DNA from: a virus
DNA: 64,000 nt
Reading direction: 5' to 3' (one strand)
Virus record (IMG/VR): IMGVR_UViG_3300019458_000021
Span: 1-64,000 of that record
Under the pieces are notes generated by a model that saw nothing but the letters and a program-made list of their open reading frames with translations, had not been told where the DNA came from and did no database searches. Position 1 is the stretch's first letter. Every line of letters starts with the position of its first letter. Positions 19,462 through 41,982 of the stretch are shown here, piece by piece. The position numbers and the translations under genes are program-made.

Positions 19462-19541
19462 TGGTGCTCGAGGGGGGATTCGAACCCCCGACCGATTCGG
19501 TTTTAGAGACCGCCGCTCTGAAACCACTGAGCTACTCGAGC
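19462..19541 (-). tRNA. tRNA-Arg(TCT)
   Basis: GCTCGAG/CTCGAGC, GCGGT/ACCGA with loop CTCTAAA, GGGGG-TTCGAAT-CCCCC, A73, CCA. Cotranscribed ahead of the vWA gene. Confidence 0.9.
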
Positions 19542-33506: not shown

Positions 33507-33529
33507 TGGTGGATTCAAGGAATCCACCA
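33507..33529 (+). promoter_or_regulatory. Start-codon hairpin of the Thg1-like gene
   Basis: TGGTGGATTC-AAG-GAATCCACCA ends on the A of the ATG. The SD (AAGGA) is loop and stem, so folding would hide it. Confidence 0.55.
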
Positions 33530-34455
33530 TGACAGACAAAACAACCCTCGGCGATCGCATGAAGGAGTACGAAGCAACGTCTCAATCAACATTGCTCCGA
33601 CGCACCCCGATTATTGTTCGTGTTGATGGACGAGCATTCCACACATTCACAAAACGATTTGTTGCTCCACAACCAATTCCTCCTGATAGTTTCGATGAAG
33701 CTCGCTTGACATCGAACAAAATTGAGGACCCGTCGTTGCGCTTAGGTCCATTTAGTGAAATGCTTCACCAGACGATGACCTACACAGCTGCAACATTGTT
33801 CAACCAACTACAAACAGCAGTATTTGTTTACACGCAAAGTGATGAGATCTCCATTTTGTTACGTGACTGGGACCGATTGGAAACACAGCAATGGTTCGGA
33901 GGGAACTTACAGAAGATCGTCTCCCTGTCGTCATCAATTGCCGCAACAGCATTCAATTACCTCCTAAATCACGTTGCGAAGTTCGTTCCTTGTTCAACTC
34001 AAGAACTTGCACAGTTTGACGCTCGTGCGTACAATCTTCCTAAAGAAGAAGTCACCAACTATTTCTTGTGGCGACAACAAGACGCTTCACGTAACAGCGT
34101 GAACATGCTTGGTCGATTCTACTTCTCGCAGAAAGAAATGCACGGTAAGAGCATCAGCGAGGTTCAGGAAATGTTGTGGTCTAAGCATCAAGTTAATTGG
34201 GACGCGCTCACGACATGGAAGAAACGCGGAGCGTGTGTTTATCAGCGCGCTGACTGGAGTCCATTTATGTCATTCCCGCGGGGAATGATTGACGACGATC
34301 CACCAATATTCTCCCAAGATCGTCCATTTGTTGAACGACACTTGTCGCCTATTTCGAATGGTCCTGACGGACCACAGGAAGGTGCGAGATTTGTCGACGT
34401 GGTAACAGGTCTGACCATAGAATGGGATGGCCTACAATGGAGACCTGTTGAATGA
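33529..34455 (+). CDS. Thg1-like 3'-5' tRNA polymerase
   Basis: 308 residues. GDRMKEYE, IIVRVDGRAFHTFTK (first metal Asp), TQSDEISILL (second metal site), DARAYNLPKEEVTNYFLWRQ, NSVNMLGRFYFS, MHGKS and KRGACVY are the Thg1 blocks in order. Thg1 adds G-1 to tRNA-His; Thg1-like proteins in bacteria and phages repair 5'-truncated tRNAs by templated 3'-5' synthesis. Here tRNA-His already encodes G-1, which favours repair. Many phage tRNAs in this window have defective 5' ends. Confidence 0.9.
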   Translation: MTDKTTLGDRMKEYEATSQSTLLRRTPIIVRVDGRAFHTFTKRFVAPQPIPPDSFDEARLTSNKIEDPSLRLGPFSEMLHQTMTYTAATLFNQLQTAVFVYTQSDEISILLRDWDRLETQQWFGGNLQKIVSLSSSIAATAFNYLLNHVAKFVPCSTQELAQFDARAYNLPKEEVTNYFLWRQQDASRNSVNMLGRFYFSQKEMHGKSISEVQEMLWSKHQVNWDALTTWKKRGACVYQRADWSPFMSFPRGMIDDDPPIFSQDRPFVERHLSPISNGPDGPQEGARFVDVVTGLTIEWDGLQWRPVE

Positions 34456-34646: not shown

Positions 34647-34965
34647 AAGAGAAGCGTCAGTAGTTAGCAAGGAAACAATCGAAGAACTACTCAAAGAAGC
34701 AGCTCACAACTTCATCTATCCACATGCACGATTCTGCATGTACGACAACGGTGAAGACATGACAGAAGCAGATATGTGGGCAGAAACATGGGAATGGCTT
34801 AATGGCAAGCTCCCAAAGAAAGACAGATATCCAAACCTGGTCGAATATATCAAGGGGTATCTGGCAGATGAAATTCAGAAAGCGAAAGACGATGCAGTCG
34901 AGCCCTACGAAGATGAGTGGCGACCGATGGTCGCGCAATTCCTTGACGAGAAATCATCATGGTAA
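34639..34965 (+). CDS. Small acidic helical protein
   Basis: 108 residues from ATG at 34639 with SD AAAGGAGACGAC inside the upstream gene. Acidic, Trp-rich (DMWAETWEWLNGKLPKKDR). Unknown family. Overlaps the thymidylate synthase start by 7 bases. Confidence 0.72.
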   Translation: MTKREASVVSKETIEELLKEAAHNFIYPHARFCMYDNGEDMTEADMWAETWEWLNGKLPKKDRYPNLVEYIKGYLADEIQKAKDDAVEPYEDEWRPMVAQFLDEKSSW

Positions 34966-36725
34966 CACACGACGAACAATACATTGCGTGCGTTAAGCAC
35001 ATTCTCGAGCACGGCGTTCAAAAACCAAACCGCACAGGGATCGACACGATCGGTGTGTTCGGCTATCAAATGCGTTTCGATCTGCGCGACTATTCGATTC
35101 CATTACTGACGACCAAGAAGGTGCACACAAAGTCGATAATTCATGAACTATTGTGGATGATGTCAGGTCGCGAAGATGTGAAATATCTTGAACAACACCA
35201 AATCACGATATGGGATGAATGGAAGAATAACAAAAGTCAACTAGGTCCAGTTTACGGCGCCATGTGGAGAGCTTATCCGCCCCCTCCAACGTTTTCACCA
35301 ACGCCCATTCGAAACGTTATAGACAATACGAAGATGCGCTCTTGGCAAGATGTTGTACCAACAATGATCTTATCGGAAGGAAAATATTCAAACAAACGAT
35401 TTACAAACATACAGGGAAGGTGCTATGTTGTTCTTGGTGTAGATGGTTTTCAAAATAATGGGGCTAAAGGACGAACGACAACTTATGCTGTTCGGTTTGA
35501 ACAAAGTGGCTGGATAAAACATGGTGTTAGCACAAGATTGGTTCGTTCAGGTCGATTTGTGGATCAGTCGGTGCCGTCTATCTATGGGATTGGAGCACTT
35601 GGTAACTATCGAAACAAAAAAGAAACGGAACAAAACAAACACTTACGACGAACGTGGGAACTGATGCTGTCTCGATGTTATAATCCTAATGATATAGCTT
35701 TTGAAACACACGGCAAGCAAGGCGTAAAAGTGTGCGAACGCTGGAAAGTTTTGAGCGATTTTCTTGAAGACGTCAAACTGCTGCCCAACTGGTTTGTCAA
35801 GCAACAAAAACAGAACTATGTCCTTGACAAAGACTATTACGGTTCTTCAAAACTTTACCATCCTGAAACGTGTGTGTGGCTTCCAAGATCACACAACAAT
35901 CTTTACCGCAAGGATGCTGTGCCTATTGTTTTATCTTCACCATCTAGCACACTGTTCTTTCCATGTGAAAACACCGCGGCAAAGTTTGTGGGGACAACAG
36001 CAGTAGTAATCAAAGCGAGACGTCTTGGAAAAGTAAAAACACTTATAAACGGTTTTGAGGTTGAACCATTTGTCAATAAAAACTTCGTTGTTCGATATCC
36101 AAACACGATTGATCAAGTCGCTACTATCGTTTGGAAACTGAAGAACACACCAAACGACCGCCGTCTCATTGTGTCGGGTTGGCATCCAGGGCTCTTGCCC
36201 TTCGATGGCATTTCTCCTTCTGAAAACGCTTCTCTTGGTCGTCAAGCATTGCCTCCATGTCACTATACGTTTCAACTATATGCAAAACCACTAACTGTTC
36301 AAGAGAGGTTGTATTCAATGACACGTCTTTATCACATTCCGGATGATGGATCAATGGATAACATAGAACAAATCCTCGATGAAAACAAAGTCCCAAAATA
36401 CGAATTGTCGCTGTTACTGAATCAACGGTCATGTGATGTTGGACTTGGTGTTCCATTTAATATCGTTCAATACAGTCTAATGCTTCGAATGTTTTGCGAG
36501 GTTGCAAATATGTCACCAGGCGATTTCATTTGGAGTGGTGCTGATGTACACATCTATGTTAACCACGTTGAATCTTTGCAAGAACAGATCACAAGAGAAC
36601 CGTATCAGTCGCCAAAATTTCGATTCAACAAAAGGGTTGACTCAATTGATTGTTTCAAGTACGATGACTTCGTTGTTGAAGGGTACATATCTCATCCACC
36701 GGTCAAAATGGACGTAGCTGTATGA
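34959..36725 (+). CDS. thyA: Thymidylate synthase with in-frame HNH insertion
   Basis: 588 residues: a ThyA of ~314 plus 274 inserted codons. ThyA blocks: RTGIDTIGVFGYQMRFDLRD, QLGPVYGAMWRAYP, then after the insertion NTIDQVATIVWKLKNTPNDR, PCHYTFQLY (catalytic Cys), LLNQRSCDVGLGVPFNI and SGADVHIYVNH. The insertion separates YP from NTIDQ next to the folate/dUMP region. It makes dTMP from dUMP with methylene-THF; DHFR follows at 38796. Whether the unspliced protein works is unknown. Confidence 0.92.
   Translation: MVTHDEQYIACVKHILEHGVQKPNRTGIDTIGVFGYQMRFDLRDYSIPLLTTKKVHTKSIIHELLWMMSGREDVKYLEQHQITIWDEWKNNKSQLGPVYGAMWRAYPPPPTFSPTPIRNVIDNTKMRSWQDVVPTMILSEGKYSNKRFTNIQGRCYVVLGVDGFQNNGAKGRTTTYAVRFEQSGWIKHGVSTRLVRSGRFVDQSVPSIYGIGALGNYRNKKETEQNKHLRRTWELMLSRCYNPNDIAFETHGKQGVKVCERWKVLSDFLEDVKLLPNWFVKQQKQNYVLDKDYYGSSKLYHPETCVWLPRSHNNLYRKDAVPIVLSSPSSTLFFPCENTAAKFVGTTAVVIKARRLGKVKTLINGFEVEPFVNKNFVVRYPNTIDQVATIVWKLKNTPNDRRLIVSGWHPGLLPFDGISPSENASLGRQALPPCHYTFQLYAKPLTVQERLYSMTRLYHIPDDGSMDNIEQILDENKVPKYELSLLLNQRSCDVGLGVPFNIVQYSLMLRMFCEVANMSPGDFIWSGADVHIYVNHVESLQEQITREPYQSPKFRFNKRVDSIDCFKYDDFVVEGYISHPPVKMDVAV
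35280..36101 (+). mobile_element. In-frame HNH/GIY-like insertion in thyA
   Basis: 274 codons open throughout and flanked by YP codons on both sides (TATCC repeat). The core HLRRTWELMLSRCYNPND, HGKQGVKVCERW, LDKDYYGSSKLYHPETCVW resembles phage HNH endonucleases of the 'W-ML-RCY / GV-VC-RW / LD+D / NCRW' type. No intein block A, no terminal His-Asn, no +1 Cys/Ser/Thr: it is not a recognisable intein. Confidence 0.7.
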
Positions 36726-39840: not shown

Positions 39841-39861
39841 AACGGGAGCTGGAGACGAGTG

Positions 39862-40395
39862 ATGTTACTATGGGAAGTGACTGACAAAGAGAAGAAGGGT
39901 TCGTACGCAGGAGTGAGATTTGACACGGCGACGAACAAAGCGATACACAAGTATATCCACGATAACAAAATCCCAACCTCGGTACGTCCGGATCGGCTAC
40001 ACAGTACGCTCTTGTATAGCAGGAAATACCTTCCTAACTACAAGCCAGCTGGTAAGCTTGACAAACCATTGATTGGCACCCCAAAAAGCTTTGAGGTGTG
40101 GAAGACTCGTCCACCGGCCGGCTCTGATGGTAAACCAACAAACTGCCTTGTGTTGAAATATTCGTGCCCCGAACTTGAAACGCGCCACAAAGAGCTGATG
40201 AAGGAGCATAGCGCTCAGTATGACTACGACGAATACTATCCACACATCACTCTTTCGTACGACATTGGCGATATGAACATCAAAGATCTGCCGGACATCA
40301 AAGACACGGTGAAGGAGATCAAAATTGTCGAGGAATATGGTGAGGATCTTGACCTTGATTGGGCACGAAACAAAGGTGTCCGCAAAGGCAGTTAA
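39862..40395 (+). CDS. acb1: Acb1-family anti-CBASS 2H phosphodiesterase
   Basis: 177 residues from ATG at 39862 (a GTG lies one codon earlier). Two catalytic motifs: RLHSTLLYS with His47/Thr49 and YPHITLSYD with His128/Thr130. The surrounding text (IPTSVRPDRLHSTLLYSRKY, KEHSAQYDYDEYYPHITLSY, DLDLDWARNKG) is what I recognise from T4 gp57B/Acb1, which cleaves 3'3'-cGAMP and related CBASS messengers. Homology is recalled, not computed. Confidence 0.82.
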   Translation: MLLWEVTDKEKKGSYAGVRFDTATNKAIHKYIHDNKIPTSVRPDRLHSTLLYSRKYLPNYKPAGKLDKPLIGTPKSFEVWKTRPPAGSDGKPTNCLVLKYSCPELETRHKELMKEHSAQYDYDEYYPHITLSYDIGDMNIKDLPDIKDTVKEIKIVEEYGEDLDLDWARNKGVRKGS

Positions 40396-40396
40396 A

Positions 40397-40541
40397 ATGG
40401 ATTTTTACATCTACCAGCTTGGAACAAAGGCATTCCACTACAAAAAGACCAAATAACAAAAAGAACGGCCACAAGATTGCAGCGACGGTTAGCAACTGGC
40501 AAGTTGACTCCCCGTTTCTTTTGAGGTATAAATACACCTAA
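40397..40541 (+). pseudogene. Frameshifted small gene before the tmRNA
   Basis: MDFYIYQLGTKAFHYKKTK stops after 19 codons, but a shifted frame continues NKKNGHKIAATVSNWQVDSP to 40541, which looks like the rest of the same protein. The tail overlaps the tmRNA promoter. Confidence 0.45.
40527..40534 (+). promoter_or_regulatory. Late promoter TATAAATA of the tmRNA
   Basis: Predicted start near 40541, just before the acceptor piece. Confidence 0.75.
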
Positions 40542-40920
40542 CACTGTGTGAAGCAGCTGCAAGGCGGACAAGACCCGAGTTCGAATCTCGGCATCTCCAC
40601 CAACACGGTTCGAATGATAAGTTGAGTCTAGGGCAGAGGTACAACAGTTGTGAGACACTGCCATTGTGAGAAATGCTAGCAAAGCTCACACACGAACCAC
40701 CTATGGGGGTGAATGGAATTGATTGACGTGCGAGTGGCCAGTGGACAGTGCGAGAGACGACTGACGTAATCAGCGTAAAACGTTAAACGCAAACGACTCT
40801 GCGTACAATGTTGAGGAACTCTACGGAGTAGCTGCTTAACAGCAGCCTTGCCTCGACCGAGCGTGACTGCTTGGGAACAGGAAACGTCAGAAAGAGGAGC
40901 CTCGTGCTCCTCTTTCTTTA
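40541..40920 (+). ncRNA. ssrA: Circularly permuted tmRNA (ssrA)
   Basis: Order on the strand: acceptor piece with T-arm CCGAG-TTCGAAT-CTCGG, CATCTCC-A and CCA (40560s-40602); a 102-base spacer; then 5' acceptor GGGGGTG (40705-40711), which pairs 7/7 with CATCTCC; the D-like AATGGAATTGATTGACG; and the tag frame starting at the resume codon GCA (40789), ANDSAYNVEELYGVAA, TAA at 40837. Hairpin GCTGC-TTAACA-GCAGC spans the tag stop like P5. This is the layout of two-piece tmRNAs of alpha- and some beta-proteobacteria. tmRNA frees stalled ribosomes and marks the nascent chain for ClpXP; the tag ends VAA. Confidence 0.92.
40891..40920 (+). terminator. Rho-independent terminator of the tmRNA
   Basis: AAAGAGGAGC-CTCGT-GCTCCTCTTT followed by CTTTA. 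Confidence 0.85.
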
Positions 40921-41286: not shown

Positions 41287-41982
41287 GTGTTTACATATAC
41301 CTACAAGAATTCTCGGGCTGAGGAAGAAGAACAGCCGAAAAAAGATCCGAAGAAGAAGCCATACAACGCGTATGAGACTACCTTCACAGCGGCTCAGGTC
41401 CACTTTTACCTTAGCGAAGAAATTGGCGAACCAAACGAATACACCGACATGATTCATCGGATCCTCGTCGCTGGTCCGAATGACATCATCTTTATCCACC
41501 TGAACACACCTGGAGGTCGGCTCGATACTGGTGTTCAAATTGTCAACGCCATGCAAAATTCTCAGGGCAAGATCATCACAGTTCTCGAAGGAATGGCATT
41601 CTCACTTGGTACATTGATCTTCTTGGCAGGCGACGAAATGATCGTCAACGATCATTGTATGTTGATGTTCCACAACTTCAAGAGTGGTATCTTAGGCAAG
41701 GGTCAGGAACTTGCAGCCCAACTTGAGGCAACAATGAAATGGTTCACCGCTCTTGCAAAGAACCTTTACATTCCCTTCTTGACAGAGGAAGAGTTTAATC
41801 GTATTCTGCGAGGCGAAGACATCTACATTCATTCCCCTGAAATTCGACGACGTCTTGATGTAATGATCAAGCAGATGTCAGAGTCGAAGAAACCCAATAA
41901 AGCTACAAGAATCACAAAGCCAACACCACCACCTGGTAAATTGCGCTACGAGGGTGATGACAAGGGTCGTCCTGCAAAGTGA
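41287..41982 (+). CDS. ClpP-like serine protease
   Basis: 231 residues from GTG at 41287, preceded by AGGAGGCGA. DIIFIHLNTPGGRLDTGVQI, then EGMAFSLGTLIFLAGDE (catalytic Ser in FSLG) and DHCMLMFHNFKSG (His) are the ClpP/SppA core. N- and C-terminal charged tails are phage-specific. It could be a head protease or associate with host ClpA/X. Together with ClpS it suggests control of proteolysis. Confidence 0.85.
   Translation: MFTYTYKNSRAEEEEQPKKDPKKKPYNAYETTFTAAQVHFYLSEEIGEPNEYTDMIHRILVAGPNDIIFIHLNTPGGRLDTGVQIVNAMQNSQGKIITVLEGMAFSLGTLIFLAGDEMIVNDHCMLMFHNFKSGILGKGQELAAQLEATMKWFTALAKNLYIPFLTEEEFNRILRGEDIYIHSPEIRRRLDVMIKQMSESKKPNKATRITKPTPPPGKLRYEGDDKGRPAK

What the first reader, a model, noticed from the sequence alone, without database searches (positions are those of the whole stretch)
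40527..40920. Phage-encoded, circularly permuted (two-piece type) tmRNA
The T-arm/acceptor/CCA piece (to 40602) precedes the 5' acceptor (40705-40711) and tag frame (40789-40839, ANDSAYNVEELYGVAA). The two acceptor strands pair at all seven positions, a P5-like hairpin spans the tag stop, and the unit has its own late promoter and terminator. Permuted ssrA genes are known from alpha-, some beta-proteobacteria and some cyanobacteria; a tailed phage carrying one late in infection would be unusual and suggests phage-controlled ribosome rescue or tagging.
Basis: partly seen in the sequence, partly recalled or inferred. Interest (0 to 1): 0.97.

Follow-up and report, generated by a model that had tools for sequence, protein, structure and literature searches.

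The report
Phage gene for two-piece tmRNA
A large T4-like phage carries a genuine gene for a split transfer-messenger RNA, the RNA that rescues stuck ribosomes and tags their unfinished proteins; it is real, but many phages are already known to carry such genes, so it is a new example rather than a new kind of thing.

Summary
Rfam's permuted tmRNA model (RF04321) matches window 40542-40839(+) end to end at 97 bits (cut-off 47; E about 1e-17 for the window). ARAGORN misses the gene. Relatives show compensatory changes in the helices that join the two pieces. Four related phage lineages keep a permuted tmRNA in the same neighbourhood, three with the tag end VE(E/A)LYGVAA. A T4-like late box (TATAAATA) lies just upstream; it occurs 13 times in the window against 0.7 expected. 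The window belongs to a 237-kb virus record; no SmpB was found in it, so host SmpB is presumably used.

The claimed rarity does not hold. Two-piece tmRNAs are published in tailed phages (Melnitz; 53 two-piece among 133 phage tmRNA structures). Phage DLP6 also has one, unannotated. Verdict: real, a new member of a known kind. Processing, charging and tagging are inferred.

The parts
40527..40534 (+). T4-like late-promoter box TATAAATA; predicted RNA start a few bases downstream, almost at the 5' end of the acceptor piece
   Evidence: 13 copies in the window vs 0.73 expected; the same box sits just upstream of the tmRNA in L140 and L004/L005
40542..40602 (+). Acceptor piece: P2 5' strand CACUG (40542-40546), T-arm CCGAG-UUCGAAU-CUCGG, 3' acceptor strand CAUCUCC 40592-40598, A73, encoded CCA 40600-40602
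   Evidence: RF04321 alignment; covariation in 5 sequences
40603..40704 (+). Intervening segment, 102 nt, presumably removed; length very variable in relatives (about 5 nt in L004, 31 in DLP6)
   Evidence: sequence; removal inferred
40705..40711 (+). 5' acceptor strand GGGGGUG of the coding piece, predicted RNase P cut just before 40705; G3.U70 alanine identity pair
   Evidence: RF04321 alignment; compensatory changes in 3 of 7 pairs
40712..40788 (+). D-loop-like region (GGAAUUGAUUGACG, without the C of the usual UUCGA), P2 3' strand CAGUG (40746-40750), P3, and the bases before the resume codon
40789..40839 (+). Tag reading frame ANDSAYNVEELYGVAA + UAA
   Evidence: RF04321 match ends at the stop; VE(E/A)LYGVAA tag end also in L004/L005, L140, L255
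40818..40829 (+). Possible hairpin inside the tag frame, ACUC-UACG-GAGU; these 12 bases are unchanged in the four VE(E/A)LYGVAA lineages
   Evidence: sequence comparison; the stem does not vary, so there is no covariation and the structure is inferred
40831..40846 (+). P5-like hairpin GCUGCU-UAAC-AGCAGC with the stop codon in its loop
   Evidence: 100% paired in 3 sequences, 2 pairs with changes on both sides (small sample)
40889..40917 (+). 11-12 bp hairpin followed by a short U-run, likely terminator
   Evidence: fold; hairpins of different sequence at the same place in L140, L004, L006; not called by the simple scan

Best explanation
This is a functional-type, circularly permuted ssrA (tmRNA) gene of a large T4-like phage. 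Shown from sequence: gene order, tRNA-like domain, paired acceptor strands with G3.U70 and A73-CCA, tag frame with stop, upstream late-promoter box, and conservation in related phages. Inferred from known tmRNA biology: late transcription gives one precursor; host RNase P cuts before 40705 and host 3'-end enzymes mature the CCA at 40602; the intervening 102 nt is lost; the two RNAs stay together through the acceptor stem and P2; host AlaRS charges it, host SmpB and EF-Tu bring it to stalled ribosomes, and ANDSAYNVEELYGVAA is added to the unfinished protein, which is then degraded by a ClpXP-type protease. The likely benefit is keeping ribosomes free late in infection, when mRNA breakdown leaves many ribosomes stalled and the host's own tmRNA may be limiting.
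For: Full-length Rfam match at 97 bits. 17 pairs of acceptor, T-stem and P2 are 98.8% paired in five divergent phage sequences, 9 pairs with changes on both sides, 0 of 500 shuffles equal, and sliding destroys it. Acceptor pair 5-68, left free by the search pattern, is Watson-Crick in 182 of 184 distinct loci and G.U in 2, with three pair types. A permuted tmRNA lies in the same Acb1...ClpP neighbourhood in L004/L005, L006 and L255, and right after Acb1 in L140. Late box enriched. Phage context. No SmpB in the record.
Against: Relative L140 reads CGA in place of CCA and has one acceptor mismatch, and L004 has an unusual T-loop, so not every relative is textbook. The window's own D-loop lacks a usual base. 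ARAGORN misses it, and the minimum-energy fold is not the tmRNA fold. No expression data. Relative L003 has no tmRNA directly upstream of its ORF-ClpP pair (its contig ends there), so the gene may not always be present.
Confidence: 0.9

Rival explanations
1. A decaying copy of a host ssrA gene picked up by the phage, with no present function.
For: The D-loop is altered in the window; L140 has CGA for CCA plus a mismatch; L004 has an odd T-loop.
Against: Compensatory changes in all three helices, an open tag frame whose end is kept in four related phage lineages, conserved gene position and late box. Decay would break pairs and the frame.
Confidence: 0.05
2. A decoy: the phage RNA binds SmpB or stalled ribosomes to block host trans-translation instead of carrying it out, as suggested for the tag-less tmRNA-like RNA of mycobacteriophage DS6A.
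For: A phage with a tRNA-domain-only tmRNA is known and such a molecule inhibits tmRNA (PMC4131195, PMC11915505); no phage SmpB found.
Against: Here the full mRNA-like part, the bases before the resume codon, the tag and the stop are kept; a decoy would not need them.
Confidence: 0.04
3. Host DNA wrongly included in a virus record, or an attachment-site copy left by an integrated element.
For: Prophages do integrate in ssrA genes (general knowledge; PMC9004378), and virus collections can contain such contigs.
Against: The gene sits between phage-type genes (Acb1, ClpP-like, primase, T4-like topoisomerase) in a 237-kb record, in the same order in independent related contigs.
Confidence: 0.01

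Closest known systems
Permuted (two-piece) tmRNA, Rfam RF04321; alpha RF01849, beta RF01850 and cyano RF01851 subtypes
   Same: Gene order acceptor piece - intervening segment - coding piece; acceptor stem with G3.U70; CCA; tag beginning AND and ending AA; stop-codon hairpin.
   Different: Scores below the beta model's own cut-off; altered D-loop; a 16-aa tag with the lineage-specific end VEELYGVAA.
Two-piece tmRNA of methylophage Melnitz and relatives (PMC9004378)
   Same: Permuted ssrA in a T4-like myophage.
   Different: Melnitz's is linked to a glutamine riboswitch and placed under an early promoter by its authors; here a late box and no riboswitch match in the window.
tmRNAs of Stenotrophomonas phages Marzo (PMC8928761) and DLP6 (KU682439)
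   Same: Beta-type tmRNA in T4-like phages; DLP6's was found here as a permuted gene at 136.8 bits and is not annotated in its record.
   Different: Both lie by tRNA clusters; DLP6 tag ANDDSFAPMAIAA and a 31-nt intervening segment.

Membership tests
Permuted (two-piece) tmRNA | Match to the curated covariance model above its cut-off | tested here: met
   97.2 bits vs 47
Permuted (two-piece) tmRNA | 3' tRNA half with CCA encoded upstream of the 5' tRNA half | tested here: met
   CCA ends at 40602; 5' strand starts at 40705
Permuted (two-piece) tmRNA | Acceptor stem joins the two pieces, with the G3.U70 alanine identity pair | tested here: met
   7 of 7 pairs in the window; compensatory changes in relatives
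Permuted (two-piece) tmRNA | Tag frame with Ala resume codon, AA end and stop | tested here: met
   ANDSAYNVEELYGVAA* at 40789-40839
Permuted (two-piece) tmRNA | Processing into two RNAs, alanine charging, tagging | not testable with these tools
   needs infected cells or in vitro work
Permuted tmRNA, beta subtype RF01850 | Score above the subtype's cut-off of 84 bits | tested here: not met
   60.9 bits; so not filed under the beta subtype, although relatives L006 and L140 pass it
T4-type late gene | TATAAATA box just upstream | tested here: met
   40527-40534; motif enriched 13 vs 0.73
T4-type late gene | Transcription dependent on the phage late sigma factor | not tested
   gp55/gp33 homologues were not searched for

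The most novel reading that the evidence does not exclude
A phage lineage runs its own tag-and-degrade line: a late-expressed two-piece tmRNA adds a lineage-specific tag (VEELYGVAA), kept unusually constant at the RNA level, that is handled by the ClpP-like protease encoded beside it rather than, or as well as, by the host's ClpXP.
Probability: 0.07. Interest if true: 0.65.

Novelty: new member of a known kind. Interest (0 to 1): 0.3.

Why it matters
It confirms that permuted tmRNAs are a recurrent part of the translation kit of large T4-like phages and that a standard gene finder misses divergent ones. The lineage-specific tag end and the variable intervening segments give material for testing what phages gain from ribosome rescue and how little the processing enzymes need.

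Tried and rejected
Minimum-energy folding of the precursor and of the two pieces does not recover the tmRNA fold and was not used as support. Looking for the host through a shared sequence motif in bacterial genomes gave two pattern hits (L141, L142) that are not tmRNAs. Nucleotide search for close phage isolates found none; protein relatives among isolates are distant, at most about 41% identity for ClpP and 36% for topoisomerase. ClpP as the prohead protease is unlikely, since a separate T4 gp21-type protease lies at G000:114656-115114. Phage ClpX: only a sub-threshold AAA match. A general link of phage tmRNA with ClpP was not seen: no relative of this ClpP was found in the other pattern-matched loci held, so the pairing looks lineage-specific.

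Full report
What was checked. Rfam's merged permuted-tmRNA model RF04321 matches 40542-40839(+) over its whole length at 97.2 bits (cut-off 47, E=1.3e-17 for the window). The same stretch matches the older beta model at 60.9 bits, below that model's cut-off of 84. ARAGORN, which tRNA genes in the window, does not report it.

Is the structure real? I compared the helices in five divergent phage genes: window, L140, L004, L006 and Stenotrophomonas phage DLP6. The acceptor stem, T-stem and outer P2 helix (17 pairs) are paired in 98.8% of cells. Nine pairs change on both sides, no shuffle of 500 reaches this, and sliding the partners by 1-3 bases drops pairing to 37-51%. The segments were cut by hand from the Rfam match positions, so the alignment leans somewhat towards the structure. 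Independently, acceptor pair 5-68, which my search pattern left free, is Watson-Crick in 182 of 184 distinct loci and G.U in the other two, with G-C, A-U and C-G all common. Single-sequence folding does not recover the tmRNA fold and was not relied on.

Whose gene is it? The window is the first 64 kb of a 237,379-base virus record. The surroundings are phage: NAD-dependent ligase, DHFR, an Acb1-type anti-CBASS protein, the tmRNA, an unknown 101-aa ORF, a ClpP-like protease, a primase, T4-like topoisomerase II subunits and a DnaB-like helicase. A T4 gp21-type prohead protease lies further on. The TATAAATA late box occurs 13 times in the window against 0.73 expected; one copy ends 7 bases before the Rfam match. 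L140 and L004 have the same box in the same place. No SmpB gene was found in this record, nor in 11 other tmRNA-bearing viral records, while the same search finds SmpB in bacterial controls; several of these records may be fragments. The RNA therefore presumably uses host SmpB.

Relatives. L004 and L005 (2 differences in 10.7 kb), L255 and L006 carry a permuted tmRNA between the Acb1 and ClpP genes. L140 carries one right after Acb1 but has a different gene next, and its contig then ends. L003, the closest by ClpP, has none directly upstream of its ORF-ClpP pair, and its contig ends there. The tag ends VEELYGVAA in the window, L004 and L140, and VEALYGVAA in L255. The DNA from GTTGAG to GGAGT is almost unchanged, although the neighbouring Acb1 and ClpP proteins are only about 53-80% identical, and it can form a hairpin with a UACG loop. 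Low variation at silent sites suggests an RNA constraint, but the sample is four lineages. L006 and DLP6 have other tags (ANEGNFRLAA, read; ANDDSFAPMAIAA).

How it probably works. By analogy with well-studied two-piece tmRNAs (established knowledge; outlined in PMC9004378 and PMC11915505), one precursor is cut by host tRNA-processing enzymes into an acceptor piece and a coding piece that stay paired. Alanine charging is predicted by G3.U70 and A73. The tag ends in -VAA, a ClpXP-type signal. The late box predicts expression late in infection. None of these steps was measured.

How novel is it? Phage tmRNAs were catalogued in 2014 (PMC4131195). Melnitz's authors found 133 unique tmRNA structures in phage genomes, 53 of them two-piece (PMC9004378). 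Huge phages carry tmRNA and SmpB (PMC7162821). Marzo's tmRNA is described as similar to the beta-class tmRNA of its host species (PMC8928761). The current tmRNA database lists 79 phage sequences (PMC11915505). Of the pattern-matched contigs put through Rfam, all 12 and all 8 passed RF04321 at gathering. Some IMG/VR contigs may hold host DNA, so not all 184 need be phage genes; on the other hand the scans were cut short. The gene is a new member of a known kind.

Limits. The host is unknown. The tmRNA's donor lineage was not traced. The terminator was not called by the simple scan and rests on hairpins in the same place in relatives. The link to the neighbouring ClpP is one of position only; no ClpX was found above threshold.

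Noticed in passing
L159, L152, L186, L204, L150, L171, L169, L190 (and L004 4290-4493): Permuted tmRNA genes in viral contigs with intervening segments of only about 1-5 nt, all passing RF04321 at gathering. The precursor would be a hairpin whose loop holds the CCA end, which raises the question of how it is opened.
   Followed up: partly
L140 13868-14091: A relative of the window's tmRNA reads CGA where CCA is expected and has one acceptor mismatch (U6.U67): a variant that needs CCA repair, decay, or a sequence error.
   Followed up: no
L004/L005 4290-4493: T-loop reads GGCGGUA instead of the usual UUCGAAU, while the stems are perfectly paired; seen in two contigs.
   Followed up: no
L002 1874-2095 (KU682439.2, 102838-103059): Stenotrophomonas phage DLP6 has a permuted tmRNA (136.8 bits) that its record does not annotate and its paper does not mention.
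   Followed up: yes
window 39859-40395: Acb1 anti-CBASS protein gene (PF23474, 115 bits) directly before the tmRNA; also beside it in relatives.
   Followed up: partly
window 33529-34455: tRNA-His guanylyltransferase (Thg1) gene in a phage with some 26 tRNA genes.
   Followed up: no
window 41287-41982: ClpP-like protease separate from the gp21-type prohead protease; the Ser, His and Asp of the catalytic triad appear present by eye.
   Followed up: partly
window 34959-36725: Thymidylate synthase reading frame interrupted by an HNH endonuclease domain, intein-like.
   Followed up: no
window 19462-19541 (-): ARAGORN calls a tRNA with anticodon CUA (labelled Pyl; 64 bits as a tRNA in Rfam), a possible amber-suppressor tRNA.
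   Followed up: no
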